Source: Limnoperna fortunei
Lineage: Eukaryota > Mollusca > Bivalvia > Mytilida > Modiolidae
Direction: 5' to 3'
Assembly (NCBI GenBank): GCA_944474755.1
Contig: OX104125.1
Coordinates: forward strand, 48,635,288 to 48,699,287
Length of the DNA: 64,000 nucleotides
The notes under the pieces are model-generated. The model was given only the letters and a program-made list of their open reading frames with translations, did no database searches and was not told the DNA's origin. Positions 16,482 through 38,536 of the stretch are shown piece after piece. Numbering within the stretch: position 1 is the stretch's first letter; each line of letters begins with the position of its first letter. The position numbers were made by a program, and so were the translations under genes.

Positions 16482-17720
16482 TTATATACATGTACGATTT
16501 CCTACCTCTTTATAGTCCTCAAACCATGTTTGAAAGAAATCTTGAATGCTATGACTTTGACTATGGTCATCACAAAAGTATTCATCTTCTAAATCCAGTA
16601 ACTCACTGTAGCTATGGCGACCAGCAGACATGTGTATGTTGCCATCCGAGCACTTTGACTTCACTGTGTATGACACTGATCTTGTTTCAAATTTTTCTTT
16701 GGCTACCTCAGTTGTTCTTGTCAATTCCTCTAAAAGTGCTTTACATCTTCCTTTCTCCACATTTTTCCATTGCCATATCTGCAGTGCTATTGTGTTTTTA
16801 CAGAAACACAAAATAAATTTTCGGAACTTGGTACTGTCGAGAAAGAACACTCCCATACCATGATAAATAGCCATTCGACCATTTTGTGGTTCAGCGCACA
16901 CAGGATATTTACTGATATAATGACACAAGATATGGTTGAAAAAGTCAAATGGCATAAAATCAAACTCTATACACAACCATGGTGTTCGCTTACAGTTATC
17001 TTTCTTTGCATTAAACCTATCAATGATATCTGTCAATGAAGCTTTCTCAGAGATCATACAAGGCATATAATAAGTAGGTAAGATTTGCCTTTGTCCGTTT
17101 TCCTTTAAAGTTGTAATTTTTACTATAATACCAAATATTTCCATTACATTTAGTAAGTGACTGCTATGTTTGTTAAAGTCAAGTTCTGGTTCTTTATCAA
17201 AGAGTTTTACAATCAGAGAGGGCACAAGCTTTCCTGTGTCTTCTAGTGCTTTCCATTCATCAGTCAGCTTCAGGTTGGAATCAAATTTGTCTGAAACAAG
17301 ACATCTGAAAGCATTTGCTAACCATTTTTGGTTTAGTATAATATATTCTTTTAAACTCTCAAAATATACGACACCTCCCACTTTATGTTGATATTTCAGG
17401 AAAAGTTTTATTTCATCCTCGCTATCAATTGAACATTGAGAAGATAGTTCGACAATATCCAACCAAGATAATATGTTCATCTCAGCCTCCCTTAAAACAC
17501 CAATTGATTGTTCTAAACGTATCCAACGTAAGGGTAACTTTTCAGCAAACGTTTTGACTTGCTTTCCATATTTAAAAACTGTGTTGCGCAAATCATTAAA
17601 ATCCCCTTCGTCTGACTCAGTGTTTGAAACATAACATATCTCTCTTACATGTTTTTTCTTAGCTTCGTTTTTTAATACAGACAGTAGTTGTTTTCTGAAG
17701 TCATCTTTTCTTTCCTGCAG
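16482..17720 (-). CDS. HEPN-Ig-ROCO gene, last visible exon: COR domain
   Basis: Starts after the acceptor TTTCTTTTAG (17,721-17,730) in phase 0 and runs 412 codons to TAA at 16,482-16,484. Residues ~1-55 hold the Roc-COR linker; residues ~60-280 match the COR (C-terminal of Roc) domain: LPLRWIRLEQSI, a short helix, then HKVGGVVYFE, YIILNQKWLANAFRCLVS and later YYMPCMI, the pattern seen in ROCO proteins such as LRRK, MFHAS1 and DAPK1. In that family COR mediates dimerisation and couples to the GTPase. The C-terminal ~100 residues are charged and of no recognised fold. A possible donor (AAAGAG|GTAGGA near 16,503) shortly before the stop means the protein may continue on a further exon. The first in-frame ATG is internal, so no start is called here. 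Confidence 0.85.
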   Translation of the reverse strand: MQERKDDFRKQLLSVLKNEAKKKHVREICYVSNTESDEGDFNDLRNTVFKYGKQVKTFAEKLPLRWIRLEQSIGVLREAEMNILSWLDIVELSSQCSIDSEDEIKLFLKYQHKVGGVVYFESLKEYIILNQKWLANAFRCLVSDKFDSNLKLTDEWKALEDTGKLVPSLIVKLFDKEPELDFNKHSSHLLNVMEIFGIIVKITTLKENGQRQILPTYYMPCMISEKASLTDIIDRFNAKKDNCKRTPWLCIEFDFMPFDFFNHILCHYISKYPVCAEPQNGRMAIYHGMGVFFLDSTKFRKFILCFCKNTIALQIWQWKNVEKGRCKALLEELTRTTEVAKEKFETRSVSYTVKSKCSDGNIHMSAGRHSYSELLDLEDEYFCDDHSQSHSIQDFFQTWFEDYKEVGNRTCI

Positions 17721-18179
17721 CTAAAAGAAACAAAAATCCTAAATTTTCACCTGTTTTGCTCCTGAATATTGTTTTTGTCACAAACAATTATTTGTTAACT
17801 GACAAAAAAAATATATACTAGAAATCTTAAATTGATGATTATAGATAATATACTTTTTTTAAACGAGATGCATTTTTTCGTCCATATCTTATCGAAGGGC
17901 CACAGCCCTGAGATGAGATAACGAGAAAATGCATCAAGTTTCAAAAAACATAAATAATCTGTTTATTGCTGTTTTGGAACATTGTGATGTCACTGTCTTT
18001 ACTTAACTTGACAGATGTGCATACTAGTTAAGGATAAAGTACAATGTAAATGTTATAAATTGTTTTACTGCAGATGTCTGAATGATTTACCCTGTCTTAA
18101 TAACAAGACACATATTTTAGAGTTACGATATTACTGACTCGGTTATTAAGGTTTGCCAGCATCTTACAGAGTTTCTGAT

Positions 18180-18210
<31 letters not shown>

Positions 18211-18467
18211 CGTCTAGCAAGCAATATTTCAGCAATATTCAGGACGTTTTTGATATAATTATCAGAGGGATAGATACACAATATAACTTATTTTAATTCT
18301 ATTATCATTTAATTGGTCTTACTCCATTGAAATTTCAATGGAAATAAAAATATTTACTATTTTAAATATTTAATTGACCATATTAGACATCTATATTGTA
18401 TTCAAAACACTTATAAAATGAGATCAAAAAGTTGTTTAATAACTTAATATTTGCTCATAACACTTAC
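17721..18467 (-). other. Intron between G4 and COR exons
   Basis: AT-rich, with a (GATT)n run at about 18,180-18,200 followed by a GTTAAACGTCTAGCAAGCAA phrase also found near 55,480. No exon seen. Confidence 0.6.
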
Positions 18468-18595
18468 ATGATCTCTGCACTCGTCCATTCTGGTACAAAC
18501 AATGATTGCTGGCGGATAGAGAAGTTCTGTCTCCTCTTTCATTTCCTCCTTATTGGCACATGAGTGAATAGTATCAAGCCAGAAATCTATATACT
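18468..18595 (-). CDS. HEPN-Ig-ROCO gene: Roc exon with G4 motif
   Basis: A 128-nt exon, acceptor TTTTTATAG and donor CAT|GTAAGTG. It encodes EYIDFWLDTIHSC, a charged stretch, then PPAIIVCTRMDEC. The TRMD after a hydrophobic strand is the G4 (N/TKxD-type) guanine-specificity motif of Ras-like GTPases, in the position expected for a Roc domain. The incoming phase-1 G from the preceding exon completes the GAG of the first residue, and the exon ends on a codon boundary, matching the phase-0 start of the COR exon. Canonical N/TKxD has Lys where this has Arg, a change tolerated in several Roc proteins. Confidence 0.85.
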
Positions 18596-19738
18596 CTATA
18601 AAAATAAAGGAGTCAATTAAAAATATGAAAAAGATTTCAAGGGGGCAATACACGAATAAGGGCATTTGGAATTATTATTAATATTAGATACTTTCTAAGG
18701 ATCATTTAAAGATGGTTTAATGGTTTCACGTGTCAGAATGGCATAACATCTGAAATCCAGATATAAAACAAAGTGGATACATGTGATGCATGTGATACCT
18801 CAATAACACAAGTTAGTTTGAATATTGTTTAAAGCCACTTTCAGCAATTTTACAGCTACATCGTGGCATCCAGTGATTATTAGGGGGGAAGCCGGAGGAC
18901 CCAGAGAAAAACCCCTAACCTTAGGTAGGGAAACTGGTACTTGTTAATTAAGATTGTAGTCAAGCACACCCATTATAGTGAGACTCGAACCAGCAATCTA
19001 GGTTTTGACAGACCATGTGATCAATAGTGGATGAATTACCTTAACTACTCAGCCACCAAGGGACCTTACACAAGTTAATGAAGATCTGATATATTTGACT
19101 GATAAGTGTATGTTTAACATACATTAAATCAATGTACATGCACAGTCTATATTACAGACAAAACATTGGATATGTTGGTCATCTGGGTGGTGAAGTTAAA
19201 GAGATTTGAACATAGACCAGCACTAAGTCACGCTAACCATACCCCCACTCAACCATTTTTATGACTAATCCTTATAATAACACTGTATGGTTTCAGGAAG
19301 TAGATAACTGAATGACCTGGAAATGGGAGGCTCAGTACAACTCATCATGCTAAAGGCTTTAGCTGTATACAAATTTTGAAATCAAGCCCTATAGTAGAAG
19401 CTGAGAAATCTCTTACAAAAAATTTTCCTATTTTGTCCCTGGAAATAGTCTTAGTCGGCTCGGAAGTAGATAACTGACTGGCCCAGAAAGGGGAGGCAAA
19501 GTACAACTCATCATGCTAAAGCTGTGCACCAAATTTAAATTTATAACAAACACATGGATCCAAATAGAAAAGTTGTTCCAGAGGAGAAGATTAAAAAAAG
19601 AAAACTGGATGGCTAGATATTTAGGGGAAACAGGGTATGTGATGAAAATATCTCACCCTGACCTTTAACAAAGCTAACTAAAAAGAGAAACATTATTTGT
19701 ACCAGACTTATATTTTATCTAATTTTAAAGTTTCAAAC
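18596..19738 (-). other. Intron with SINE and short duplication
   Basis: Contains the antisense SINE at 18,832-19,066 and two related segments (about 19,298-19,380 and 19,462-19,540, sharing GAAGTAGATAACTGA and ACAACTCATCATGCTAAAG). No coding exon seen. Confidence 0.6.
18832..19066 (-). mobile_element. tRNA-derived SINE, antisense
   Basis: Reverse complement of the SINE family described at 62,978-63,205: tail (CACTTTCAGCAATTTTACAG), body (GGAGGACCCAGAGAAAAACC, TTAATTAAGATTGTAG), B-box remnant (GACTCGAACC) and head-side sequence ending in the complement of the GGTGGC tRNA-like start (GCCACCAAGGGACC). Confidence 0.85.
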
Positions 19739-20305
19739 CTCCAATTTTATCAAAGCCGTCTTCTGATCTAATTGGTTTAACATCTTTCATGATGTTTGCA
19801 ACCAGAATATGTAAGGCATTTTGATTAAGGAATATTGGGTGAGTGGCATAGTAATCTTTCTCTCCAGCAAAATCCAAAATTCCACATTCCACAAACTTAA
19901 AAGCTGGTACATCCACTTTTTCTATACCATCCAGTAAATCACCCAGACCTTGTAAAATTTTGTCAGTCAATAATTTAGTAATTGACTTGGAGTGACTATC
20001 TATTTCCACTTCAAAGTGTTCTGGAAAATTAGAAGTTGTTGCTAATGACTGGTCTTCACTTGTTCTTATCTTTCTTTTTCTTAGAGAGTCATCTTCCTGT
20101 ATATCATGGCTAGTCTTCCTTTTTCTTTCTGATCTACAATGAGAAACATTGAGAGGCTCTCTATTGCTATCTTTGCTGCCATTATCATCTTGTAAACCAA
20201 TGGTATTTAAACTGTCAGCTTTGTCTTGTAAAGTCTCGTCTTCTGCAGTACTTGAATGACTAGCTGTTTTAATTCTAGTTAACAATTCTTTCTTTTTATC
20301 TGATA
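19739..20305 (-). CDS. HEPN-Ig-ROCO gene: Roc exon with long insert and G3 motif
   Basis: A 567-nt exon (phase 1 to 1); acceptor TTCAATTGCAG, donor GGAG|GTTTGA. The first ~105 residues form a charged, low-complexity stretch rich in Ser, Asp, Lys and Arg, including ERKRKTSHD and LRKRKIRTSED, which together resemble a bipartite nuclear localisation signal. The last part resumes the GTPase fold: FKFVECGILDFAGEKDYYATH, whose DFAGxxxYYxTH is the G3 / switch II signature of Roc domains (DxxG), followed by PIFLNQNALHILVANI. Insertion of about 130 residues between switch I and G3 is unusual for a Roc domain. The donor GTTTGA is weak, but the phase match to the next exon supports it. Confidence 0.85.
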
Positions 20306-21755: not shown

Positions 21756-22001
21756 CCTCATCAAAGATCCATTTGCCATCCCTAAGGCGAATTTTACATC
21801 GATGTATATCAATCCCATCTGTACTTTGGACTCCTGTGGTACTCTGTTTTAGTAGCCGTCTAAGCAAACATGTTTTGCCTACACCATTTTCTCCAATTAT
21901 AACAATTCTGAGATAGTACCGTGTCTCAGTACCAGACTTGATGATGTCATTGTATAGTGCTTTATCTTCTTCACTTAAATGTTGGATAGCAGTTGGCATT
22001 T
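21756..22001 (-). CDS. HEPN-Ig-ROCO gene: Roc P-loop exon
   Basis: A 246-nt exon (phase 1 to 1); acceptor TTTTTTTATAATAG, donor GATGAGG|GTAATT. About 20 residues of linker (HLSEEDKALYNDIIKSG) lead into RIVIIGENGVGKTCLLRRLL, where GENGVGKT is a canonical Walker A / G1 motif with the Lys and Thr that bind phosphate and magnesium. It is followed by STDGIDIHRCKI, the switch I-side signature shared by Roc domains. The ATG at 21,997-21,999 sits right after the acceptor, so it could be read as a start, but the preceding Ig exon ends in phase 1 and its G completes a GAA codon, which favours an internal exon. Confidence 0.88.
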
Positions 22002-22885
22002 CTATTATAAAAAAAGTTAATAATCAAACAGTCCATTGCTCATTATTTGTAAATATTTTAATACAATAATAAAATTTGTTTAAAAAAATATTAATACAAC
22101 TTACTCGGAATAGTTCTGTAATAAATGATATTGAACTATAATTGAAGAAAGTATACTGAAATGCTACACATACAATTAAACTTAAAGTCACACCTCCACA
22201 TGGAGTGCGGTGTTTTGCTTGCATTTTTTTCATTATTCCATATTGTACCTTTTTATTAATAAATTCCAGACGGAAAAATTATCGTACGATGACCATGATG
22301 ACAGGTCCATACTTTATACAAGGCCTCCATTATTTAATTGTCACAAATCGTCCTTGAATTTTGCTACTGGAATTTTAAATGTAAAGTCAGCCATTTTGGT
22401 TCATAAAGGGATATAATATTGTTTACAAACGTTTGTCTGCTTTCCTGACGTTCAATGGACAAACCATGAGATTTTTACCCCTCAACTGCAGACGACATTA
22501 TCCTAAGGATTCTAAAAGAACAATCGACGGTACCTTCTGTACACTTTCTTTCTAGTCAAAATTTACTACAGAAAAAATGAAAATACCTTTTTGGACCTAC
22601 AAAAGAAGCATAAGCTGGACCATACGCAGTAAGCAGCTTTTATTTGTCACTCTGCAAATGTAAACCGACTTTCACTATAATCTACTGTTTACCTTGTATG
22701 CAAATGTAATACTTTGCTTTTGTATCCTGTGCATCCTGGCAATTTATCAATCCTAATTTACAGTACATTAAACCAGCAGTTGGACAAAACAAAATTCATA
22801 ATTCTTATTTTTTTTTGTGTTAAATGTCTTACTGAAATATAAAATTTCTATGTACATGTATAATCCCTGTATTTCTTAACCTTAC
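22002..22885 (-). other. Intron between Ig3 and P-loop exons
   Basis: AT-rich; no further exon or clear mobile element recognised. Confidence 0.55.
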
Positions 22886-23143
22886 CTTGAACAATAAGTT
22901 GAGAATATCGAACACAATTTTTTATCTTGACAGAGTACTCTCCCTTATCATCAAGACTTGTTTTGATTACAGCAAGCCTGTGAAGTCTTCCATGTCTATC
23001 TGCTTTATATTTCTCTGATGTGCTAACTTCAATACCATCTTTGTACCATAGGGCAGTTTGATTGTCATCCAGTACTTCACATTCAAACTGAACATTTTCA
23101 CCCTCTATACATGTCATAGTAACTAATGGTTTAGTAAAATATT
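22886..23143 (-). CDS. HEPN-Ig-ROCO gene: third Ig-like exon
   Basis: A 258-nt exon, phase 1 to 1; acceptor TTTCCTCCACAG, donor GTTCAAG|GTAAGG. It encodes one I-set-like immunoglobulin domain: EYFTKPLVT, B strand EGENVQFECEV, C strand ALWYKDGIEV with the core Trp, E strand LHRLAVIKTSLDDKGEYSVKI with the D-x-G-x-Y tyrosine corner, G strand SQLIVQ. The B-strand Cys is present, but the F-strand Cys is replaced (YSV), so no standard disulfide forms, as in many intracellular titin/obscurin-type Ig domains. It starts very like the preceding Ig exon (EYFTKxL), a sign of tandem duplication. Confidence 0.87.
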
Positions 23144-23528
23144 CTGTGGAGGAAATAGGAAATGTTTTGCCATTTTATAATATTAGTAAAATCTTGCTAA
23201 TATCTGTAGTACCAACATAAATAGTATTTGCTCTAAAACTAAAAATTAAAAAATATCAATCATCCAACTTAATATAGCCAAGAAGGGTAAAAAATAATCT
23301 CACACTGACCTTAAATATGCAAAAGGTTCATTACAGTAAGTAACACCCTGGCAACTCTGAATAAAATTACCTCATTAAAATGATTCACAATTTATTTTGA
23401 GATCAAAAACACACATTATAATACACAGTGTCATCTACTCCCCAACCACCCATATATATTTTTGAGAGAGTAGACCAAACTTCAATTATATGGGCACTGC
23501 TTCTATAACAAGGTAGAAGTTTGTTTAC

Positions 23529-23786
23529 CTATCACAACAAGAGATGTTTCTCTGACTCTGTTGTTTATACTGACTGCGTAATTGGCTGTATCATGTAACT
23601 CACAATTCTTAAAGGATAGTCTGTGAATTTTTCCTGCTTGCAAAATTTCATAGTTTTCTTTAAAAGTCAAGGGGATTCCATTTTTGTTCCAGCTAGCAAG
23701 TATGATGTCTTCTTTAACTTCACATGTGAATTCAGCTCTCTCTCCTTCAATACACTTCACACTTTGGAGGTTCTTTGTGAAGTATT
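23529..23786 (-). CDS. HEPN-Ig-ROCO gene: second Ig-like exon
   Basis: Same length (258 nt) and phase (1 to 1) as its neighbours; acceptor TTTTTGTATAG, donor GATAG|GTAAAC. One I-set-like domain: EYFTKNLQSVKCIEGERAEF, then FTCEV (B strand), ASWNKNGIPL (C strand, core Trp), KIHRLSFKNCELHDTANYAV (E-F, with the tyrosine corner) and RETSLVV (G strand). The B-strand Cys is kept; the F-strand partner is missing (YAV). Confidence 0.87.
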
Positions 23787-24334: not shown

Positions 24335-24592
24335 CTTCTACATATAGATGTGCCTGTCTTTCAACGTCCTTCACCCTGACGGTGTATAGTCCTTTATCAG
24401 AGGGTAAAGTGTTTCTTATGTCCAGACTGTGGATTTTACCAGACGTTCCTGCTATAAACTTCTCAGATCTTACAATCTCCACCCCATCTTGCAACCATAA
24501 TGAGCACAGCCCACATTCCTTTGTCCTGATCTCAAAGTGAGCGTCACAACCTTCAGTAACAATGACATCACATAGATCTGTGGTCAAACATT
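24335..24592 (-). CDS. HEPN-Ig-ROCO gene: first Ig-like exon
   Basis: 258 nt, phase 1 to 1; acceptor TGATCTATCCAG, donor GTAGAAG|GTGAAC. Encodes an I-set-like domain: CLTTDLCDVIVTEGCDAHFE, C strand SLWLQDGVEIV with the core Trp, IHSLDIRNTLPSDKGLYTV (E-F with tyrosine corner), RQAHLYVE (G strand). Neither canonical Cys is in its normal place (FEI in B, YTV in F), although four other Cys residues occur. It is the most diverged of the three. The incoming G from the mini-exon at 28,271-28,307 completes a GAA codon as in the other two Ig exons. Confidence 0.84.
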
Positions 24593-25659: not shown

Positions 25660-28250
25660 CTAGAGGCTCCCAGGAGCCTGTATTGCTCACCTGAACCTGA
25701 AACCAAACAACCCATTTTTGTCCAGCTTTTCTTTCCTATAAGGAACTGCCCAACACTTCTGCAAACGTCATTAATTTTGACCTTTTAAGGGAAATAACTC
25801 CTATAAGGAGAAAATTTTGATGCTTAGAGGGAGAAGGGAGGTTCACTTCAAATTTGTGGTACCTGTTATACTTTTTTAACTATCAGCCGAAAACTCTCTT
25901 GACCCCCACCCCCCTTTTCTATTTTATGCCAACATAGCCATGTAGGTAGTCAGCTGTCATGATTTGCACAATTTTGGTAGAGGACATCTTAAAGACGATG
26001 TGTGCAATGTTTCAAAGCAGTCCTTTCATTGGCTGAAGAGAAGAAGAATTTTTAAAATGAATTAAAATTGATTAAAAAAAATTGAAGAATGTGTCCATGG
26101 GACACGGATGACCCGCGAAAGGAAGTCCCAAACAGGAAGTAGTTGTCCAACAGGTCTGAAAGTCGCTTAGGGCGTACTACTTGTAATACTTAACCATTCT
26201 GCCAATTTTCAAATTGTTCTAACGTACGGTTTCTGAGTAAAGCTTGACAGAAATTTTCATACTCGTGTTAACACATTTTCAAATCAGCCCAGTCGAAAAC
26301 AGGAAGTAGTTGTCCGACAGGTCTGAAAGTTGCTTAGGACGTACAACTTGTGATACTGAACTACCCTGTCAAATTTCAAGTTGTTCTTGTGTATGGCTTC
26401 TGAGAAAAGCTTGATGGAAATTTTCATACTCGTGTACACACATTTTCCTATTGGCCCAGTCGCAACAGGAAGTAGTTGTCCAACAGGTCGGAAATCACTT
26501 AGGACGTACAACTTGTGATACTAAACCACAATGCCAAATTTCAAATTGTTCTCATGTACGGTTTCTGAGAAAATCTTGACAGAATTTTCATACTCATGTT
26601 AACACATTTTCATATCAACCCAGTCCAAACAGGAAGTAGTTGTCCCACAGGTCTGAAAGTTTCTTAGGATGTACAACTTGTGATACTGAATTACCCTGCC
26701 AAATTTCAAATTGTTCTGATGTACGGTTTCTGAGAAAAGCTTGACGGAATTTTTCAAACTCATGTTAACACATTTTCATATCAGCCCAGTCCAAACAGGA
26801 ATGAGTTGTCCTTCAGGTCTGAAAGTCGCTTAGGACGTACAACTTGTGATACTGAACCACTCTGCCAAATTTCAAATTGTTCTGTTTGGTTTCTGATGAA
26901 AGCTTGACGGAAATTCGTACGGACGGACAGACAGACGAACGCACATGAGTAAAACTTAATGCCTGGCATAAAATTGAAGAATGTGTCCATGCCCCCGCTA
27001 AATGGAGTCCTAAACATGAAAAAGTTGTCCAATAGGTCTGACAGTCGCTTTTGACATAAAATTGTGATACTGAATCACCCTGCCAAATTTCAAATTGTTC
27101 TGATGTACGGTTTTTGAGAAACGCTTGACGGAATTTTTCATACTCATGTTAACACATTTTCATATCAGCCCAGTCCCAAACAGGAAGTAGTTGTCCTTCA
27201 GATCAGACAGTCGCTTAGGATGTACAACTTGTGATACTGAACCACCCTGCCAAATTTCAAATTGTTCTGATGTACGGTTTCTGATAAAAGCTTGACGGAA
27301 ATTCGTACGGACGGACAGATGGACGGACGAACATGAGTAAAACTTAATGCCCCTGACTTGTCGTTGCGGGGGGCATAAAAATCCATGGGAAACAGATGCC
27401 CCCTCTAAATGAAGTCCCAAACAGGAAGTAGTTGTCCGACAGGTCTGAAAGTTGCTTAGGACGTACAACTTTTGATACTGAACCACCCTGTTAAATTTCA
27501 AATTGTTCTCATGTACGGTTTCTGAGAAAAGCTTGAAGGAAATGCGCACATACGGACAGACGTATTTACGTACAAATGAAGTCCAAAACAGGAAGTAGTT
27601 GTCCGACAGGTCTGAAAGTCGATTAGGACATACAACTTGTGATACTGAACCACCCTGCCAAATTGCAAATTGTTCTCATGTACAGTTTCTGTGAAAATCT
27701 TGACGGAAATGTGTTAGTTCGGACATACATATATACAAACGTACATACGGACGGACAGACATGAGTAAAACTTAAAAACAGTTCAAGAAGAATAACTGAA
27801 CTCTTAAACGGTTAATCAGACAATCTTGAATCTAAAGCTATTTTTGTAGCTCTCATCATGCTCATAGAGCACCACAATTAAGCAATGCTAACGTTTTCTC
27901 AAGTTCTAATAATTTTCAAGATTTTAGGGCAAACATGGCAAAAATCATCAATTTTGACAATTAAAGGGCATTAACTCCTACAAGGAGTCATCATACAACT
28001 TTGACCTAATGAAGTGTTTTGTAGAGCATTTGATGCTGAAAAAGGAAGGTCTCTTCAGTTTTCCTATATATCTGTTATACTTTATGAAATATAAGCCAAA
28101 CATTTTTTATTTTGCCCCCCCCCCCCTGTTCTATTTTTAGCCATGGTGGCCATGTTGCAGGTTGTGCAAACTTGATAGAGGACATTTTACTGATGATGTG
28201 TGCAAAGTTTCAAAGCAATTCCTTCAATGGCTTTGGAGAATATAAAGTGC
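25660..28250 (+). mobile_element. Palindrome-ended element, copy 2, expanded, 3' end missing
   Basis: Begins CTAGAGGCTCCCAGGAGCCT exactly as the other copies and follows the family body to about 26,060, where a different repeat block (26,090-27,780) interrupts it; the family body resumes from about 27,775 to 28,250. The terminal GGTGAGCTAA hairpin is not found. It sits in the intron between the mini-exon and the first Ig exon. Confidence 0.7.
26090..27780. repeat. Repeat block of about 165 bp per unit
   Basis: Eight or so copies of a segment containing CAGGAAGTAGTTGTCC ... TACAACTTGTGATACTGAAC ... CAAATTGTTCT ... TTTCTGAGAAAAGCTTGACG. Several copies end in runs such as ACGGACGGACAGAC and TGAGTAAAACTTAATGCC. 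Spacing is near 165 bp in the regular part (26,130-26,800) and longer afterwards. Non-coding. Confidence 0.8.
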
Positions 28251-28270
28251 ATGCAAGTACATGTACATAC

Positions 28271-28307
28271 CTGGTAATGATTTCTCTGCTAAAAGTCTTT
28301 GAATTGT
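28271..28307 (-). CDS. HEPN-Ig-ROCO gene: 37-nt mini-exon
   Basis: Found by scanning for an exon able to link the HEPN exon (ends phase 0) to the first Ig exon (needs a phase-1 G). The acceptor is TTATATTTTCAG (28,308-28,319) and the donor CCAG|GTATGT (28,270 downward). The 37 nt read TIRQ-free as TIQRLLAEKSLP plus G, phase 0 to 1, exactly what the two neighbours demand. Both splice sites are strong. The peptide is too short to recognise by homology, so the call rests on splice signals and phase only. Confidence 0.6.
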
Positions 28308-28746: not shown

Positions 28747-30655
28747 AAAATGTGGTGATACCCATGAGACTAACAGTTCACCAGCAGAGGCATTGACACA
28801 GTGGTTGGTGGTGATACCCATGGGACTAACAGTTCACCAGCAGAGGCATTGACACAGTGGTTGGTGGTGATACCCATGGGACTAACAGTTCACCAGCAGA
28901 GGCATTGACACAGTGTTTGGTGGTGATACCCATGGGACTAACAGTTCACCAGCAGAGGCATTGACACAGTGGTTGGTGGTGATACCCATGGGACAAACAG
29001 TTCACCAGCAGATGCATTGACACAGTAGTTGGTGGTGATACCCATGGGACTAACAGTTCACCAGCAGAGGCATTGACACAGTGGTTGGTGGTGATACCCA
29101 TGGGACAAACAGTTCACCAGCAGATGCATTGACACAGTGGTTGGTGGTGATACCCATGGGACTAACAGTTCACCTGCAGAGGCATTGACACAGTGGTTGG
29201 TGGTGATACCCATGGGACTAACAGTTCACCAGCAGAGGCATTGACACAGTGGTTGGTGGTGATACCCATGGGACTAACAGTTCACCAGCAGAGGCATTGA
29301 CACAGTGGTTGGTGGTGATACCCATGGGACTAACAGTTCACCAGCAGAGGCATTGACACAGTGGTTGGTGGTGATACCCATGGGACTAACAGTTCACCAG
29401 CAGAGGCATTGACACAGTGGTTGGTGGTGATACCCATGGGACTAACAGTTCACCAGCAGAGGCATTGACACAGTGGTTGGTGGTGATACCCATGGGACTA
29501 ACAGTTCACCAGCAGAGTCATTGACACAGTGGTTGGTGGTGATACCCATGGGACTAACAGTTCACCAGCAGAGGCATTGACACAGTGGTTGGTGGTGATA
29601 CTCATGGGACTAACAGTTCACCAGCAGAGGCATTGACACAGTGGTTGGTGGTGATACCCATGGGACTAACAGTTCACCAACAGAGCCATTGACACAGTGG
29701 TTGGGGGTGATACCCATGGGACTAACAGTTCACCAGCAGAGGCATTGACACAGAGGTTGGTGGTGATACCCATGGGACTAACAGTTCACCAGCAGAGGCA
29801 TTGACAAAGTGGTTGGTGGTGATACCCATGGGACTAACAGTTCACCAGCAGAGGCATTGACACAGTGGTTGGTGGTGATACCCATGGGACTAACAGTTCA
29901 CCAGCATAGGCATTGACACAGTGGTTGGTGGTGATACCCATGGGACTAACAGTTCACCAGCAGAGGCATTGACACAGTGGTTGGTGGTGATACCCATGGG
30001 ACTAACAGTTCACCAGCAGAGGCATTGACACAGTGGTTGGTGGTGATACCCATGGGACTAACAGTTCACCAGCAGAGTCATTGACACAGTGGTTGGCGGT
30101 GATACCCATGGGACTAACAGTTCACCAGCAGAGGCATTGACACAGTGGTTGGTGGTGATACCCATGGGACTAACAGTTCACCAGCAGAGGCATTGACACA
30201 GTGGTTGGTGGTGATACCCATGGGAGTAACAGTTCACCAGCAGAGGCATTGACACAGTGGTTGGTGGTGATACCCATGGGACTAAGAGTTCACCAGCAGA
30301 GGCATTGACACAGTGGTTGGTGGTGATACCCATGGGACTAACAGTTCACCAGCAGAGTCATTGACACAGTGGTTGGTGGTGATACCCATGGGACTAACAG
30401 TTCACCAGCAGAGTCATTGACACAGTGGTTGGTGGTGATACCCATGGGACTAACAGTTCACCAGCAGAGGCATTGACACAGTGGTTGGTGGTGATACCCA
30501 TGGGACTAACAGTTCACCAGCAGAGGCATTGACACAGTGGTTAGTGGTGATACCCATGGGACTAACAGTTCACCAACAAAGCCATTGACACAGTGGTTGG
30601 TGGTGATACCCATGGGACTAACAGTTCACCAGCAGAGGCATTGACACAGTGGTTG
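28747..30655. repeat. 56-bp minisatellite array, highly homogeneous
   Basis: About 34 copies of a 56-bp unit (GGTGATACCCATGGGACTAA ... CACCAGCAGAGGCATTGACA). Most copies are identical or differ at one or two positions. It lies in the intron between the HEPN exon and the mini-exon. Confidence 0.96.
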
Positions 30656-30754: not shown

Positions 30755-32779
30755 CTAGAGCAACAATAACAAGAACAAAGGGGTGGACTAACAAGAACAA
30801 AGGGGTGGATAACAAGAACAAACGGGTGGATAACAAGAACAAAGGGGTGGATAACAAGAACAAAGGATGATTACAAGAACAAAAGGGTGGATAACAAGAA
30901 CAAAGGGGTGGATAACAAGAACAAAGGGGTGGATAACAAGAACAAAGGATGATAACAAGAACACAAGGGTGGATAACAAGAACAAAGGATGATAACAAGA
31001 ACAAAGGGGTGGATAACAAGAACAAAGGATGATAACAAGAACAAAGGATGATAACAAGAACAAAAGGGTGGATAACAAAAACAAAAGGGTGGATAACAAA
31101 AACAAAGGATGATAACAAGAACAAAAGGATGATAACAAGAACAAAAGGGTGGATAACAAGAACAAAGGGGTGGACTAACAAGAACAAAGGGGTGGATAAC
31201 AAGAACAAAGGGGTGGATAACAAGAACAAAGGATGATAACAAGAACAAAAGGGTGGATAACAAGAACAAAGGGGTGGACTAACAAGAACAAAGGGGTGGA
31301 TAACAAGAACAAACGGGTGGATAACAAGAACAAAAGGGTGGATAACAAGAACAAAGGGGTGGATAACAAGAACAAAGGATGATAACAAGAACAAAAGGGT
31401 GGATAACAAGAACAAAGGGGTGGATAACAAGAACAAAGGATGATAACAAGAACAAAAGGGTGGATAACAAGAACAATGGGTGGATAACAAGAACAAAGGA
31501 TGATAACAAGAACAAAAGGGTGGATAACAAGAACAAAGGGGTGGATAACAAGAACAAAGGGGTGGATAACAAGAACAAAGGATGATAACAAGAACACAAG
31601 GGTGGATAACAAGAACAAAGGATGATAACAAGAACAAAGGGGTGGATAACAAGAACAAAGGATGATAACAAGAACAAAGGATGATAACAAGAACAAAAGG
31701 GTGGATAACAAAAACAAAAGGGTGGATAACAAAAACAAAGGATGATAACAAGAACAAAAGGATGATAACAAGAACAAAAGGGTGGATAACAAGAACAAAG
31801 GGGTGGACTAACAAGAACAAAGGGGTGGATAACAAGAACAAAGGGGTGGATAACAAGAACAAAGGATGATAACAAGAACAAAAGGGTGGATAACAAGAAC
31901 AAAGGGGTGGACTAACAAGAACAAAGGGGTGGATAACAAGAACAAACGGGTGGATAACAAGAACAAAAGGGTGGATAACAAGAACAAAGGGGTGGATAAC
32001 AAGAACAAAGGATGATAACAAGAACAAAAGGGTGGATAACAAGAACAAAGGGGTGGATAACAAGAACAAAGGATGATAACAAGAACAAAAGGGTGGATAA
32101 CAAGAACAATGGGTGGATAACAAGAACAAAGGATGATAACAAGAACAAACAGGTGGATAACAAGAACAAAGGGGTGGACTAACAAGAACAAAGGGGTGGA
32201 TAACAAGAACAAACGGGTGGATAACAAGAACAAAAGGGTGGATAACAAGAACAAAGGGGTGGATAACAAGAACAAAATGTTGACCATAAAGTTTTTGGCA
32301 CGAAAAGAGAATGTTACTTTTAACTAAGTTCAGTGCAAACATATACATGTACATGTAATGGGTGGATAACAAGAACAAAGGATGATAACAAGAACAAAAG
32401 GGCGGATAACAAGAACATAGGGGTGGATAACAAGAACAAAGGATGATAAAAAGAACAAAAGGGTGGATAACAAGAACAAAGGGGTGGATAACAAGAACAA
32501 AGGATGATAACAAGAACAAAAGGGGTGGATAACAAGAACAAAAGGTTGGATAACAAGAACAAAGGGGTGGATAACAAGAACAAAGGATGATAACAAGAAC
32601 AAAAGGGTGGATAACAAGAACATAGGGGTGGATAACAAGAACAAAGGATGATAACAAGAACAAAAGGGTGGATAACAAGAACAAAGGGGTGGATAACAAG
32701 AACAAAGGGGTGGATAACAAGAACAAAGGATGATGACAAGAACAAAGGGGTGGATAACAAGAACAAAGGGGTGGATAAC
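30755..32779. repeat. 21-bp satellite, block 1
   Basis: Tandem GGATAACAAGAACAAAGGGG units (21 bp, with 20-bp variants carrying GATGATAACAAG and 23-bp GGACTAACAAG forms). Two long segments are near-identical at a 633-bp offset (about 30,790-31,300 and 31,423-31,933), a higher-order repeat. The minus strand is open for 660 codons (FLLSTPL-type heptads) only because 21 is divisible by three. Non-satellite sequence at 32,271-32,360 is a copy of the array's right flank. Confidence 0.96.
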
Positions 32780-33944
32780 TAGAGGCTCTTAACAGCCTGT
32801 ATCGCTCACCTGACTTACAAAAAAAAATGCAAATTATGATATTAAATGCTAAATTGTTTATGTGAAGATGCTGTTTCTATGAATGTTGCCATGTTGAATT
32901 TACAATCAGCAGTAAGAGACTTTCTGAGAAGAAGCAGTTTTTATGTTTTTTCATAGGTTAGTTTGTTAAGTGTGATGTTCCATGGTGGCAGCAATCTTGT
33001 CTTTCGGGACAAAACAAAAAATCAAAATTAGTAGAATACAATATCACATATCCTAAAATCTGCCTAGCGCTTTGAGAGAAAACGAATTTTGAAATCTCAG
33101 CCAGTCAGATAGCATTTGCAGCTCCTATCGGGTCGAAACATACTTAAAATAATAAGATTACTATCTAAGATTATTTGGTTAAATTGTGTGGAACTGAGTT
33201 TCAGAGAAAAAGCTGTTTGTATGGTTTTCCCAAAGGGACCCATGTTAAGATGTGTTCTACTGTGTCCACCATCTTGGAATTTGGATCACCACAAAAAACT
33301 CAAATTTTGTAGAAGACCATCTAAGGTACATTTGTGCAATATTTCAAATCAATCTGCTATGCAGTTTGTAAAAAGAAGATTGTTGAAATTTCAGCCAATC
33401 AGAACCCATTAGTTGCCCTGGAAGCCATGTTCAATTTGCAATTGGCTCAAAAAACTCAAAATAATAAGATAAATATTCATTAATCATTTCTTCATAATTT
33501 GGCTTCATTGTGTTGAACGGTTTCAGAGAATGTTGTTTGTATGTTTTTCACGTAAGGTTCTATGTTAAACTAAGTCCTGCAATGGCAGCCATCTTGGATT
33601 TTGGATCAGCACAAAAAACTCAAACTTTGTAAAGGGCCACCTGAGGTACATTTCTGCAATATTTCAAATCAATCTGCCAAGCAGTTTATGAGAAGAAGAT
33701 TTTGAATTTCAGTCAATTAGAACGCATAAATGGCTCTGGCAGCCATGTTTTATATTTGATCAGCACCAAAAAACTCAAACTTTGTAAAGAACCACCCAAT
33801 AAACATTTCTGTCATGTTTGGTTCAAATTGGCCAAGGGGTTTTGGAGAAGAAGATTGAAATGTGAAAAGTTTAAGGCCGGCGACTAAGACAGAGGCAAAG
33901 TGATGAGAATAGCTCACACTGACCCTTTGGGTCAGGTGAGCTAA
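32779..33944 (+). mobile_element. Palindrome-ended element, copy 3, inside the 21-bp satellite
   Basis: Starts CTAGAGGCTC after GGATAA and ends in the TGACCC/GGGTCA hairpin plus GGTGAGCTAA at 33,944, after which the satellite continues in register. An AAC on each side (32,777-32,779; 33,943-33,945) is compatible with a 3-bp duplication. The interior holds two or three ~190-bp repeats (AAAAAACTCAAACTTTGTA, TTCAAATCAATCTGC, GAGAAGAAGATT). No protein. Confidence 0.82.
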
Positions 33945-35950
33945 CAAGAACAAAGGGGTGGATAACAAGAACAAAGTGGTGGATAACAAGAACAAAGGGG
34001 TGGATAACAAGAACAAAGGGGTGGATAACAAGAACAAAAGGGTGGATAACAAGAACAAAGGATGATAACAAGAACAAAAGGGTGGATAACAAGAACAAAG
34101 GTGTGGACTAGCAAGAACAAATGGGTGGATTACAAGAACAAAGGGGTGGATAACAAGAACAAAAGGGGTGGACTAACAAGAACAAAGGGGTGGATAACAA
34201 GAACAAAGGGGTTGATAACAAGAAGAAAAGGGGTGGATAACAAGAACAAAGGATGATAACAAGAACAAAAGGGTGGATAACAAGAACAAAGGCGTGGATT
34301 ACAAGAACAAAATTGTGGATAACAAGAACAAATGGGTGGATAACAAGAACAAAAGGGTGGATAACAAGAACAAAGGATGATAACAAGAACAAAGGGTGGA
34401 TAACAAGAACAAAGGGGTGGATAACAAGAACAAAGTGGTGGATAACAAGAACAAAGGGGTGGATAACAAGAACAAAGGGGTGGATAACAAGAACTAAGGG
34501 GTGGATAACAAGAACAAAGGGGTGGATAACAAGAACAAAAGGGTGGATAACAAGAACAAAGGGGTGGACTAGCAAGAACAAAGGGGTGGATTACAAGAAC
34601 AAAGGGGTGGATAACAAGAACAAAAGGGGTGGACTAACAAGAACAAAGGGGTGGATAACAAGAACAAAGGGGTGGACTAACAAGAACAAAGGGGTGGATA
34701 ACATGAACAAAGTGGTGGACTAAGAAGAACAAAGGGGTGGACTAACAAGAACAAAGTGGTGGACTAAGAAGAACAAAGGGGTGGATAACAAGAACAAAGG
34801 GGTGGACTAACACGAACAAACAGGTGCATAACAAAAACAAAGGGGTGGACTAACAAGAACAAACAGGTGGATAACAAGAACAAAGGGGTGGACCTAACAA
34901 GAACAAAGAGGTGGATAACAAGAACAAAGGCGTGGAATAACAAGAACAAAGTGGTGGATAACAAGAACAAAGGGTTGGACTAACAAGAACAAAGTGGTGG
35001 ACAACAAGAACAAAGGGGTGGACTAACAAGAACAAACAGGTGGATAACAAGAACAAACGGGTGGATAACAAGAACAAAAGTGTGGATAACAAGAACAAAG
35101 GGGTGGATAACAAGAACAAAGGGGTGGATAACAAGAACAAAGGATGATAACAAGAACAAAAGATTGGATAACAAGAACAAAGGGAGGGACTAGCAAGAAC
35201 AAAGGGGTGGATTACAAGAACAAACAGGTGGATAACAAGAACAAAGGGGTGGATAACAAGAACAAACAGGTGGATAACAAGAACAAGGGGGTGGATAACA
35301 AGAACAAAGAGGTGGACTAACAAGAACAAACAGGTGGATAACAAGAACAAAGGGGTGGACTAACAAGAACAAAGGGGTGGATAACAAGAACAAAGTGGTG
35401 GACTAACAAGAACAAAGGGGTGGACTAACAAGAACAAACAGGTGGATAACAAGAACAAAGGGGTGGACTAACAAGAACAAAGGGGTGGATAACAAGAACA
35501 AAAGGTGTGGACTAACAAGAACAAAAGGAGTGGACTAACAAGAACAAACAGGTGGATAACAAGAACAAAGGGGTAGATAACAAGAACAAAGGGGTGGATA
35601 ACAAGAACAAAGTGGTGGACTAACAAGAACAAAGGGGTGGATAACAAGGACAAAAGGGGTGGACTAACATGAACGAAGGGGTGGATAACAAGAACAAAGG
35701 GGTGGACTAACAAGAACAAAGGGATGGATAACAAGAACAAACGGGTGGATAACAAGAACAAAAGGGGTGGACTAACTAGAACCAAGGGGTTGATAACAAG
35801 AACAAAGGGGTGGACTAACAAGAACTAACAGGTGGATAACAAGAACAAAGGGGTGGACTAACAAGAACAAAGGGTGGATTACAAGAACAAAAGGGTTGAT
35901 AACAAGAACAAAGGGGTGGATAACAAGAACAAAGGGGTGGATTACAAGAA
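33945..35950. repeat. 21-bp satellite, block 2
   Basis: Continuation of the 21-bp array after copy 3; more variable units, with GGACTAACAAG and CAGGTGGATAACAAG types becoming common. Confidence 0.96.
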
Positions 35951-36918
35951 CTAGAGGCTCCCAGGAGCCTGTATCGCTCACCTGAACCTGAAACCAAACA
36001 ACCCTTTTTTATCCACCTTTTCATTGCTATAAGGAATTGCCCAACACTTCTGCAAAAATCATTAATTTTGACCTTTTAAGGGAAATAACTCAGATAAGGA
36101 TGAGCTTTTGATGCTTAGAGGGATAAGGGAAGTTCACATCAAAAATTGCAGTACCTGAAATACTTTTTTAACTATCAGTCGAAAACTCTCTGGACTTCCA
36201 CCCCCCCCCCCCCCCCCCTTTTCATTTTTTTTATTTTAAGCCAACATAGCTATGTAGGTAGTCAGGTGTCATGATTTGCAAAATTTTGGTAGAGGACGTC
36301 TAAAGATGATGTGTGCAATGTTTCAAAGCAGTCCTTTCATTGGTTAAAGAGGAGAAGATTTTTTAAAATCAAGTAAAATTGAATAAAATCAACCCAATGG
36401 AGTGTTTCGTAGAGCTTTTGATGCAGATGAAGGCATGTCTCTTCGATTTTCCTGTATCTGATACACTTTTTTAAATATAAGCCAAAAACTGTATTTTACC
36501 CCCCCCCCTCCGTCCTATTTTTAGCCATGGTGGCCATGTTGGTTAATCTGCAGCCATGGTTGGTGCAAACTTGGTTGAGGACATCATACAACTTTGACCC
36601 AATGGAGTGTTTTGTAGAGCTTTAGATGCTGAAGAAGAAAGTCTGTTCTGTTTTCCTGTATCTGTTATACTTTTTGAACTATAAGCAAAAAACTGTATTT
36701 TGACCCCCCTGTTCTATTTTTAGCCATTGCGGCCATGTTGGTTGGTCTGAGGTCATGATTTGGGCAAACTTGGTAGAGGACATTTTACTGATGATGTGTG
36801 CAAAGTTTCAAAGCAATCCCTTCAGTGGTTTTTGAGGAGAAGATTTTTGAAGAAAAGTTAACGACGACGACGGACGCCAAGTGATGGCAATAGCTCACAT
36901 TCGGGTCAGGTGAGCTAA
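35951..36918 (+). mobile_element. Palindrome-ended element, copy 4, inside the 21-bp satellite
   Basis: Same start (CTAGAGGCTCCCAGGAGCCT) and end (GTCAGGTGAGCTAA) as copy 3, again inserted in the satellite next to AAC (35,949-35,951 and 36,917-36,919). The interior includes a run of more than 15 C at about 36,193-36,217. Its body is closer to copies 1 and 5 than to copy 3. Confidence 0.82.
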
Positions 36919-37720
36919 CAAAAGGGGTGGACTAACAAGAACAAAGGGGTGGATAACAAGAACAAAAGGCTTGGACTAACAAGAACAAAAGGGGTGGACT
37001 AACAAGAACAAACAGGTGGATAACAAGAACAAAGATGTGGACTAACAAGAACAAGGGGTGGACTAACAAGAACAAAGGGGTGGATAATGAGAACAAAAGG
37101 GGTGGACTAACAAGAACAAAGGGGTGGATAACAAGAACAAAGGGGTGGACTAACAAGAACAAAAGGGGTGGACTAACAAGAAAAAAGGGATGGACTAACA
37201 AGAACAAAGGGGTGGATAACAAGAACAAAGAGGTGGATAACAAGAACAAAAGGAGTGGACTAACAAGAACCAAGGGGTGGATAACAAGAAGAAAGGGGTG
37301 GAATAACAAGAACAAAGGGATGGACTAACAAGAACAAACAGGTGGATAACAAGAACAAAGGGGTGGTCTAGCAAGAACAAAGGGGTGGATAACAAGAACA
37401 AAGGGGTGGACTAACAAGAACAAACAGGTGGATAACAAGAACAAAGGGGTGGATAACAAGAACAAATGGGTGGATAACAAGAACAAAGGGTGGATAACAA
37501 GAACAAAGGGGTGGATAACAAGAACAAACAGGTGGATAACAAAAACAAAGGGGTGGACTAACAAGAAGAAAGGGGTGGACTAACAAGAACAAAGGGGTGG
37601 ATACCAAGAACAAAGGGGTGGATAACAAGAACAAAGGGGTGGATAACAAGAACAAAGGAGTGGATAACAAGAACAAAGGGGTTGATAACAAGAACAAAGT
37701 GGTGGACTAACAAGAACAAA
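36919..37720. repeat. 21-bp satellite, block 3
   Basis: Final part of the array, ending about 110 bp from the splice donor of the HEPN exon. Confidence 0.95.
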
Positions 37721-37832
37721 ATGTTGACCGCAAAGTTTTTGGCACGAAAAGAGAATGTTACTTTTAACTAAGTTCAGTGCAAACATATACATGTACATGT
37801 AATGATGTTGACCAACATACACAATAGCATAC

Positions 37833-38536
37833 CTGCATCATTTCAACATTTTCCATCAACTTTGTTTGATACATTCTGAGGATTGTTTCATCTAAAGGAC
37901 GTACTGCAGCATCACTCAACTTTTGTTTAAATTCAGAATCTCTCCCCTGGGCCTTTGCTAGTACCATAATAGACTTTTCGATCTGTGCCTTGATTATCTG
38001 GTAATCATGATCTGAAATCTTTCCATTAGTAGCATGTCCATAGGACTCATTCCTGAACTTTATCAACTCATCAACTGCTAGGCGTTCTGGCGATCTGTCA
38101 GGAATGACAGTTGTAAAATTCAACAAGAGACATCTTGTTAGTGTCAGGTCCAACTGGTTATAATTTATATTGGGGTTGGCAGGACAACAACAGTGCTTTG
38201 TCTGACTGTTTGGGTTATGTCCTGGTAACTTGGCTGATGTATCTAGCAGGATGTCCAGTTGAGCAGGATTGAGGATTCTATTAATATGTCGGAAGACTGG
38301 TGCCCTGCTTCCTGGTGGACACATACAACATGGCTTGTTGTTATAGCATAAATGGTATATCTCATGTTGTTTTGCTTGTATAAGTTGTAACAGGGTGTGT
38401 CCTTGTTTTGTCAAATCATGGTGCAGTAACCCTGTAAAGGCTTCGTTAGTGTGATCCACTATCAAAGTGGAGTTACGATAAAAATTCTCCCTTTCTCTAC
38501 ACGTATGTGTCATACTGCTGCAGGCTTTCGCATACA
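37833..38536 (-). CDS. HEPN-Ig-ROCO gene: DZIP3-like HEPN exon
   Basis: A 704-nt exon bounded by acceptor TTATGTTTCAG and donor ATGATGCAG|GTATGC; phase 1 in, phase 0 out. About 234 residues. It contains a Cys cluster (KPCCMCPPG, then KHCCCPANPN), the helix NYNQLDLTLTRCLLLNF, and LIKFRNESYGHATNGKISD. This pattern is that of the HEPN domain found in vertebrate DZIP3 and expanded in bivalve proteins; R-N-E-S-Y-G-H fits the Rx4-6H motif of HEPN ribonucleases. Residues ~1-85 and the C-terminal helix (DETILRMYQTKLMENVEMMQ) are less distinctive. The first codon is xTG, completed by an upstream exon that was not found; an ATG split by the intron is possible. Linkage to the Ig/Roc exons is inferred through the mini-exon. 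An independent gene ending elsewhere is the alternative. Confidence 0.82.

What the first reader, a model, noticed from the sequence alone, without database searches (positions are those of the whole stretch)
16482..38536. A HEPN - Ig - Ig - Ig - Roc - COR protein: a combined nucleic-acid/GTPase sensor-like architecture
Seen in sequence: eight phase-compatible exons joining a DZIP3-like HEPN domain, three I-set-like Ig domains and a complete Roc GTPase (GENGVGKT, DFAGEKDYY, TRMD) with COR. Established: HEPN domains with Rx4-6H often are RNases or non-catalytic nucleic-acid-associated helical bundles in immunity and stress systems; ROCO proteins are dimerisation-controlled GTPase scaffolds. Inference: fused together, a GTP-regulated COR dimer could control a HEPN effector, with Ig repeats as a target-binding or spacer module. 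I do not recognise this exact domain order as a named family.
Basis: partly seen in the sequence, partly recalled or inferred. Interest (0 to 1): 0.87.

Follow-up and report, generated by a model that had tools for sequence, protein, structure and literature searches.

The report
Mussel HEPN-ROCO receptors with hypervariable propellers
A mussel-like bivalve genome carries a large family of genes that join a predicted RNA-cutting domain, Ig domains, a GTPase switch and a ring-shaped propeller whose one face differs strongly from copy to copy, which looks like a big inherited set of immune sensors.

Summary
The observed gene is real and larger than described. On the minus strand, 12 exons (38513-4207) splice in frame into 1529 aa: HEPN - 3 Ig - Roc - COR - B-box - six-bladed NHL-type propeller. 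The missing HEPN-Ig link is a 37-nt mini-exon, also present in a paralogue whose HEPN is only 51% identical. It belongs to a huge family: 77 of 103 scored COR exons have a HEPN exon upstream on the same strand within 60 kb, none on the opposite strand; 67 of 103 also have the propeller exon downstream. HEPN, Roc and COR are under purifying selection. The propeller exon is not: pN/pS 1.48 over 23 copies (bootstrap 1.17-1.86), above 1 in 11 of 11 disjoint pairs against 0 of 11 for HEPN. Its 31 most variable residues all lie in the two loop sets of one face. I read it as an NLR-like receptor family: HEPN effector, Roc-COR switch, hypervariable sensor. Architecture, expansion and selection are shown from sequence; splicing, ligand, RNase activity and expression are inferred. 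Partial parallels are published (fungal NWD, brown-algal ROCO, oyster HEPN-Ig-TRADD-N); my paper searches listed none with this combination.

The parts
37833..38513 (-). exon 1: start codon and DZIP3-like HEPN domain with R154-x5-H160
   Evidence: PF18738 3.6e-7; Rx5H in 23 of 23 sampled copies; AlphaFold mostly helical model, mean pLDDT 83; donor GTATGC. Start codon inferred
28271..28307 (-). exon 2: 37-nt mini-exon TIQRLLAEKSLP, phase 0 to 1
   Evidence: same exon in A and C (TIKRLLAEKSLP) and in B (TIKQLLGEKKLP); not found in the held part of D
24335..24592 (-). exon 3: Ig 1, 258 nt, phase 1-1
   Evidence: I-set 4.7e-7
23529..23786 (-). exon 4: Ig 2, 258 nt, phase 1-1
   Evidence: I-set 3.6e-12
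22886..23143 (-). exon 5: Ig 3, 258 nt, phase 1-1
   Evidence: I-set 5.7e-13
21756..22001 (-). exon 6: Roc part 1 with P-loop GENGVGKT
   Evidence: Roc 2e-6; P-loop in 5 of 5 copies; pN/pS 0.16 in 5 copies
19739..20305 (-). exon 7: Roc part 2, long insert and DFAGEKDYY
   Evidence: Roc 0.0038, below cut-off; matched in A, B, C, D, E
18468..18595 (-). exon 8: Roc part 3 with TRMD
   Evidence: no Pfam hit alone; frame and splice sites; matched in A-E
16506..17720 (-). exon 9: COR
   Evidence: COR-A 2.9e-14; 103 scored copies in own genome; pN/pS 0.21 in 5 copies
11932..11977 (-). exon 10: linker, 46 nt, phase 0 to 1
   Evidence: matched in A, C, D with the same donor CAGGAAG/GT; not found in the held DNA of B or E
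11528..11555 (-). exon 11: linker, 28 nt, phase 1 to 2
   Evidence: identical in window, A, C and D; not found in the held DNA of B or E
4207..5074 (-). exon 12: B-box zinc finger and six-bladed NHL-type propeller, stop
   Evidence: ANCHR-like B-box 1.6e-6, SGL 6.2e-6, NHL 7e-4 just below its cut-off; Foldseek Brat NHL 3.6e-14; 142 matches in own genome, 135 used
4237..4905 (-). span of the 31 hypervariable codons (exon-12 residues 58-280), all nearest to D-A or B-C loops

Best explanation
The gene encodes one member of a large germline family of intracellular, NLR-like immune receptors built on a ROCO switch. The C-terminal NHL-type propeller is the variable sensor: each copy carries its own set of residues on one face and binds a different non-self or danger ligand (protein or RNA). 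Binding relieves restraint on the Roc-COR GTPase/dimerisation module, which brings the N-terminal HEPN domains together or frees them to cut RNA, giving translation arrest, cell death or antiviral RNA decay. The Ig repeats are a scaffold whose number varies between loci. Shown from sequence: the open 12-exon frame, the family, the module order, the intact Rx5H and P-loop, purifying selection on HEPN/Roc/COR, diversifying selection centred on one propeller face. Inferred: splicing, intracellular location, GTP control, RNase activity, immune role, ligand class.
For: In-frame 12-exon gene. Recurrent architecture: HEPN upstream of 77/103 COR within 60 kb, propeller exon downstream of 82/103 within 40 kb, both at 67/103; the propeller exon is upstream of none and on the opposite strand once. 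Mytilus proteins with overlapping parts: HEPN-like-Ig P0010 (HEPN by alignment, 40% identity; Pfam below cut-off), Ig-Roc-COR P0009, Ig-Roc-COR-B-box-propeller P0029. Rx5H in 23/23 and P-loop in 5/5. Selection: propeller exon pN/pS 1.48 (1.17-1.86), COR 0.21, Roc exon 1 0.16, HEPN 0.28-0.29; 11/11 against 0/11 disjoint pairs. 31/31 hypervariable residues in loops of one face. Two genes that differ at 2/681 HEPN bases differ at 23/31 sensor residues. Analogues: fungal NWD propellers (PMC4986451, passages), brown-algal LRR-ROCO (PMC11378527, passages), oyster HEPN-Ig-TRADD-N (PMC8195603, passages).
Against: No transcript, protein, ligand or assay. 26 of 103 scored COR exons have no scored HEPN within 60 kb, 72 of 150 scored HEPN exons have no scored COR within 60 kb, 53 of 135 propeller exons have no scored COR within 40 kb, and P0029 has no HEPN; some of this is the scoring cap, but separate or HEPN-less forms may exist. 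Mini-exon not found in the held part of D, linker exons not in that of B or E. Foldseek found no PDB match for the HEPN model. No RING. Copy A has a stop in HEPN and one in Roc exon 2. Selection was measured with Nei-Gojobori counts, not a recombination-aware codon model. Haplotype duplicates may inflate the copy count.
Confidence: 0.68

Rival explanations
1. Same architecture, but the variable propeller face recognises self or partner proteins (allorecognition, gamete or tissue compatibility) rather than pathogens, like HET-D/E/R incompatibility NLRs of Podospora.
For: Positive selection on the interaction surface and concerted evolution are published marks of NWD incompatibility genes (PMC4986451, passages); here background divergence of the propeller exon is low and face divergence high.
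Against: Dozens of loci on several chromosomes suit a repertoire better than a few compatibility loci; nothing here tests it directly.
Confidence: 0.12
2. The propeller is an RNA-binding NHL domain, so the protein is a sequence-directed RNA surveillance nuclease: propeller picks RNA motifs (viral or transposon), HEPN cuts them.
For: Best structural matches include the NHL domains of Brat, TRIM71 and Mei-P26, some solved with RNA; NHL domains recognise RNA in divergent ways (PMC5908797, passages); HEPN has Rx5H.
Against: Hypervariable positions take acidic, aromatic and small residues as well as basic ones (residue lists, not counted), which does not single out RNA; structural matches are at 10-19% identity in the 50 rows listed.
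Confidence: 0.2
3. HEPN and Ig-Roc-COR are neighbouring but separate genes, or HEPN is joined only in some isoforms.
For: 26 of 103 COR exons lack a scored HEPN within 60 kb; P0029 starts with Ig; the window introns around the mini-exon are about 9.5 and 3.7 kb of satellite-rich DNA; a loose scan gave 46 mini-exon candidates; none found in the held part of D.
Against: Strand and order bias 77 to 0; a phase-correct mini-exon in the window, A, C and B, that is 4 of the 4 loci where the whole stretch is held, one of them with a 1.3 kb gap; P0010 is a deposited HEPN-like-Ig protein.
Confidence: 0.07
4. The family is mostly a by-product of subtelomeric duplication (relaxed pseudogenes), and the propeller pattern is mutation or assembly noise.
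For: 67 of 102 COR copies lie within 5 Mb of a contig end, about 12% expected by length; satellites fill the introns; copy A has stops.
Against: 100 of 103 COR rows, 143 of 150 HEPN rows and 142 of 142 propeller rows are listed without stops; purifying selection on HEPN/Roc/COR; noise would not fall 31 of 31 times on one face.
Confidence: 0.05

Closest known systems
Crassostrea gigas HEPN-Ig-DED-TRADD-N (-WD40 or -Mab21) expansion (PMC8195603; passages)
   Same: bivalve-specific expansion, N-terminal HEPN followed by Ig repeats, propeller at the C-terminus in some
   Different: DED-TRADD-N where this protein has Roc-COR; no hypervariable face in the passages I saw
Mytilus californianus LOC127729668 (P0029), deposited protein, no function given in the listing
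   Same: Ig - Roc - COR - B-box-like - propeller-like in the same order
   Different: no HEPN; about five Ig-like segments by eye, two I-set stretches by Pfam
Fungal NWD/HNWD NLRs such as HET-E (PMC4986451, passages)
   Same: effector - NTP switch - propeller with a few positively selected positions per repeat on the interaction surface, concerted evolution, N-terminal domain swaps
   Different: NACHT instead of Roc-COR, WD40 instead of NHL, HET instead of HEPN, incompatibility function, highly similar repeats within a gene
Brown-algal LRR-ROCO candidate immune receptors (PMC11378527, passages)
   Same: ROCO switch with a sensor module under diversifying selection and exon shuffling
   Different: LRR sensor; [quoted passage not shown]
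Pinctada fucata HEPN-NACHT proteins (PMC9646362, passages)
   Same: DZIP3-like HEPN with Rx4-6H at the N-terminus of an NLR-like protein, expanded in a bivalve; TPR or WD40 at the C-terminus of some NACHT proteins
   Different: NACHT switch
Bacterial AP-GTPase(Roc)-COR conflict systems (PMC8195603, passages)
   Same: Roc-COR as switch with rapidly evolving sensor repeats and variable effectors
   Different: bacterial, N-terminal LRR sensor, other effectors such as GT4

Membership tests
ROCO | Roc GTPase directly followed by COR | tested here: met
   PF08477 and PF16095 over cut-off on exons of one frame; Mytilus Roc-COR relatives at 29-42% identity
ROCO | intact P-loop and later G motifs | tested here: met
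   GENGVGKT in 5 of 5 copies; DFAGEKDYY, and TRMD in the place of NKxD, read in the window; motif names recalled
ROCO | GTP-regulated dimerisation | not testable with these tools
   needs biochemistry
HEPN (DZIP3/hRUL138-like) | profile match | tested here: met
   PF18738 30.5 bits, cut-off 27
HEPN (DZIP3/hRUL138-like) | Rx4-6H active-site motif | tested here: met
   Rx5H in 23 of 23 sampled own-genome copies; R154, N155 and H160 invariant in 11 of 11 aligned rows
HEPN (DZIP3/hRUL138-like) | fold like solved HEPN domains | tested here: inconclusive
   mostly helical model, mean pLDDT 83, but best Foldseek match in PDB has E 4.3
TRIM-NHL | B-box and NHL propeller | tested here: met
   B-box over cut-off, NHL profile 19.9 bits against 20; 24-strand propeller matching TRIM-NHL structures
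TRIM-NHL | RING finger and E3 activity | tested here: not met
   no RING in the Pfam scans of the large exons, and the linker exons are too short for one; E3 activity not testable; not filed as a TRIM protein
NLR / STAND receptors | NACHT or NB-ARC NTPase | tested here: not met
   Roc-COR instead; weak NACHT hit (0.0017, 18.7 bits, cut-off 26.7) covers only the P-loop. Works like, is not a member
NLR / STAND receptors | effector - switch - repeat sensor layout with diversifying sensor | tested here: met
Fungal NWD | several positively selected positions per propeller repeat on one face | tested here: met
   2 to 3 hypervariable residues per loop, two loops per blade, six blades
Fungal NWD | NACHT and WD40 | tested here: not met
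   Roc-COR and NHL-type propeller instead
Oyster HEPN-Ig-TRADD-N | DED and TRADD-N | not tested
   no death-fold domain appeared in the Pfam scans, but TRADD-N was not searched with its own profile

The most novel reading that the evidence does not exclude
A marine bivalve has an anticipatory immune repertoire on a ROCO scaffold: at least 67 genes with HEPN, Roc-COR and NHL propeller in order, and probably many more, each with its own 31-residue recognition face. The face is diversified faster than the rest of the gene by a dedicated process, such as gene conversion from the much larger pool of propeller exons (1432 first-look candidates) or focused mutation, while the propeller framework is homogenised. 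It would be an animal counterpart of fungal NWD receptors, possibly with individual-specific or even somatic variation.
Probability: 0.35. Interest if true: 0.95.

Novelty: new variant of a known kind. Interest (0 to 1): 0.86.

Why it matters
Invertebrates lack lymphocyte receptors, and how long-lived filter feeders recognise so many microbes is an open question. A family of dozens to hundreds of receptors with a diversified binding face on a conserved propeller gives a concrete, testable candidate. It also adds an animal case, with a GTPase (Roc-COR) in place of NACHT, to the pattern 'effector - NTPase switch - variable sensor', and pairs that switch with a predicted RNase. If the face is diversified by a targeted process, it would be a new mechanism of receptor diversification in animals.

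Tried and rejected
Scans of the window alone for the HEPN-Ig link: 8 candidates, the later accepted one among them; a stricter scoring left 2, both satellite; a looser one gave 46. Only comparison with paralogues singled out 28307-28271. A 71-nt version of linker exon 10 (11977-11907) was dropped because its donor is kept only in window and A, while the 46-nt donor is kept in window, A, C and D. Foldseek of the HEPN model found nothing. PDB sequence search with COR gave one weak hit to a Roc-COR-type chain, 3dpt, E 0.15 (identity of 3dpt as a Roco protein recalled). The idea that the Ig repeats are the variable recognition part was set aside for Ig2 and Ig3 (pN/pS 0.34 and 0.45 in 5 copies); Ig1 (0.69, 0.35-1.46) is undecided. 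The idea that HEPN and propeller travel together: Mantel r -0.05 (p 0.72) over 23 genes, 0.40 (p 0.03) within HEPN type 1, 0.12 (p 0.29) within type 2, so linkage is weak but not absent in type 1. A genome-wide count of mini-exons by pattern and a search with the Ig exon did not complete.


Full report
What is there. The window lies at G000:C15:48635288-48699287, near the end of a 51.28 Mb contig of a 1.335 Gb genome without a name. Most of its deposited protein relatives, and all of the closest, are from Mytilus, so I call it mussel-like; the species was not identified. The gene is on the minus strand. The three Ig exons are each exactly 258 nt and phase 1-1, the kind of exon that can be duplicated without breaking the frame.

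The missing links. HEPN ends in phase 0 and the first Ig begins in phase 1, so an exon is required between them. In three loci (window, A at C15:49.93 Mb, C at C5:3.33 Mb) the same 37-nt exon with good splice sites fits. In a fourth (B at C9:1.23 Mb), whose HEPN is only 51% identical and whose gap is only 1.3 kb, the corresponding exon reads TIKQLLGEKKLP in place of TIQRLLAEKSLP, with the same length and phase. It was not found in locus D, where about 0.6 of 3.8 kb is not held; locus E has no scored HEPN nearby. At the other end the COR exon has a donor at 16506. An ORF at 5074-4207 holds a B-box and a propeller. Deposited M. californianus protein P0029 carries Ig-Roc-COR and then a region alignable with this exon at 39% identity (its B-box is below Pfam's cut-off). 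The same exon lies downstream of COR in A (93% identity), C (86%) and in part in E (80%). Two short linker exons join it in frame; the second, 28 nt, is identical in the window, A, C and D; neither was found in the held DNA of B or E. The joined gene is 12 exons, 4590 nt, 1529 aa, one stop, GT-AG throughout. The start codon and any upstream untranslated exon are inferred.

A large family. Searching the own genome exon by exon gave 103 COR matches (527 first-look candidates, 103 scored), 150 HEPN matches (319, 150 scored) and 142 propeller-exon matches (1432, 135 scored), of which I used 135 and left out seven rows that are second fragments of others. These are lower bounds because only the best candidates are scored. 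Rows with stops: 3 of 103 COR, 7 of 150 HEPN, 0 of 142 propeller (counted). Pairing: 77 of 103 COR exons have a HEPN exon upstream on the same strand within 60 kb, 66 within 40 kb; at 60 kb, upstream opposite strand 0, downstream same strand 8, downstream opposite strand 0. Random shifts of the HEPN positions by up to 2 Mb gave a mean of 7.9 and a maximum of 15 at 40 kb in 500 trials. Seen from HEPN, 78 of 150 have a scored COR downstream within 60 kb, 32 of 59 among those at 70% identity or more. The propeller exon lies downstream on the same strand of 69 of 103 COR exons within 20 kb and 82 within 40 kb, upstream of none, once on the opposite strand at 40 kb; 82 of 135 propeller exons have a scored COR upstream within 40 kb. 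Both partners: 67 of 103 COR; HEPN only 10, propeller only 15, neither 11. Some copies may be uncollapsed haplotypes. Copies sit near contig ends: 67 of 102 COR exons on contigs of known length lie within 5 Mb of an end, where about 12% would be expected by length.

Modules move independently. I sampled 23 genes: 20 of the 67, chosen by hand to spread over contigs, plus the window, A and C. Two HEPN types (14 and 9 of the 23; mean nucleotide distance 0.43 between types, 0.09 and 0.13 within) are attached to the same kind of body. HEPN and propeller distances are uncorrelated over 23 genes (Mantel r -0.05, p 0.72), weakly correlated within type 1 (r 0.40, p 0.03) and not within type 2 (r 0.12, p 0.29). 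Ig number also varies: locus D has nine Ig-like segments, two of them split, perhaps by frameshifts.

Selection. Among five loci, pN/pS is 0.21 for COR (0.16-0.27), 0.16 for the P-loop exon, 0.34 and 0.45 for Ig2 and Ig3, 0.69 (0.35-1.46) for Ig1; HEPN is 0.29 (14 copies) and 0.28 (9 copies). The propeller exon in 23 copies is 1.48 (codon bootstrap 1.17-1.86), with the propeller part at 1.71 (1.34-2.19) and the B-box part at 0.61 (0.35-1.05); dN exceeds dS in 229 of 253 pairs. Pairs are not independent, so I also took 11 disjoint nearest pairs: propeller pN exceeds pS in 11 of 11, HEPN in 0 of 11. In 31 codons (five or more residues seen; a threshold I set after looking) diversity at codon positions 1, 2 and 3 is 0.488, 0.468, 0.253, against 0.046, 0.046, 0.045 in the other 258. 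The pN/pS of 2.74 for those 31 codons is circular, because they were chosen for variability; the whole-exon and disjoint-pair figures are not. The remaining 258 codons give 0.88 (0.67-1.16), so by this measure the framework is not strongly constrained, but its absolute divergence is low (pS 0.053 against 0.20 and 0.30 for the two HEPN types), which suggests recent homogenisation.

One face. AlphaFold models the propeller with 24 strands, which I read as six blades of four; 197 of 289 residues have pLDDT 90 or more, while residues 1-42 (the B-box) are below 50. Foldseek ranks Brat NHL first (E 3.6e-14), with Thin, NHL-2, Mei-P26, TRIM2 and TRIM71 NHL domains in the 50 rows listed, beside other propellers. 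All 31 hypervariable residues are nearest to D-A or B-C connections, none to A-B or C-D; 132 of 242 residues are nearest to the first kind, hypergeometric p 1e-9 if residues were independent. D-A and B-C loops lie on the same face of a propeller (general knowledge of the fold, recalled). No two of the 23 sampled genes have the same set of these residues; the median pair shares 8 of 31 and the closest (window and A) 23. The window gene and the copy at C15:48.49 Mb differ at 2 of 681 HEPN bases but at 23 of 31 face residues.

Mechanism. The layout matches effector - switch - sensor. HEPN carries Rx5H in 23 of 23 sampled copies; for DZIP3-like HEPN proteins of pearl oyster this motif has been read as a sign of RNase activity (PMC9646362, passages). 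Roc keeps GENGVGKT in 5 of 5 copies. That ROCO proteins are GTP-regulated, dimerising switches is established knowledge (recalled; titles and abstract starts). I therefore propose: ligand on the propeller face, change in Roc-COR nucleotide or dimer state, HEPN activation. Only the anatomy and the selection pattern are shown.

Comparison. HEPN-Ig is known in oyster with DED-TRADD-N (PMC8195603, passages). HEPN with NACHT is known in pearl oyster (PMC9646362, passages). ROCO proteins with a diversifying, exon-shuffled sensor are known in brown algae (PMC11378527, passages). Hypervariable propellers on NLRs, with positive selection at four positions per repeat on the interaction surface and concerted evolution, are known in fungi (PMC4986451, passages). 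Roc and COR in TIR proteins of Aplysia are known (PMC9334734, passages). None of the entries listed by my searches (one search found no paper) is described there as HEPN-Ig-Roc-COR-NHL or as a hypervariable NHL face; several searches listed only part of their hits, and most subscription papers are not in that library, so this is not proof of absence.

Limits. No expression data, no population data, no biochemistry. Counts are lower bounds. Foldseek did not confirm the HEPN fold.

Noticed in passing
window 30766-37720, 28752-30655, 26128-27711, 38685-39899, about 6000-11500: Introns and upstream DNA of the gene are filled with minisatellites (units of 21, 56, about 165 and 28 bp, and a repeat near 39 bp whose reading frames stay open)
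   Followed up: partly
window 61733-62152 +: Retroelement fragment (weak spumavirus-type protease profile hit; gypsy-like by eye)
   Followed up: no
locus A, C15:49.93 Mb: One TAG inside the HEPN exon and one stop in Roc exon 2: a decaying or allelic copy
   Followed up: partly
locus D, C9:85.740-85.754 Mb: Nine Ig-like segments with alternating Ig1/Ig2-like units instead of three; two of them split, perhaps by frameshifts
   Followed up: partly
locus B, C9:1.2509-1.2541 Mb: The 3' end of the Ig2 exon (about residues 64-86) recurs in 25 further tblastn rows inside the next intron, as a minisatellite
   Followed up: no
Mytilus proteins P0002, P0005, P0007, P0031, P0033: A second ROCO form by eye: Cys-rich ectodomain, probable transmembrane stretch, Roc-COR, then a propeller-like end; P0013 is Roc-COR-CARD and P0001 EF-hand-coiled coil-Roc-COR
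   Followed up: no
Mytilus proteins P0014-P0017, P0019-P0025: Many of the closest HEPN relatives are fused to nSTAND3, so the same HEPN module is shared between different switch types
   Followed up: no
own genome, many places on C11-C14: Many partial Roc-profile hits (about positions 21-93 of 119) in open frames of 140-360 aa; may be another expanded GTPase family or an element
   Followed up: no
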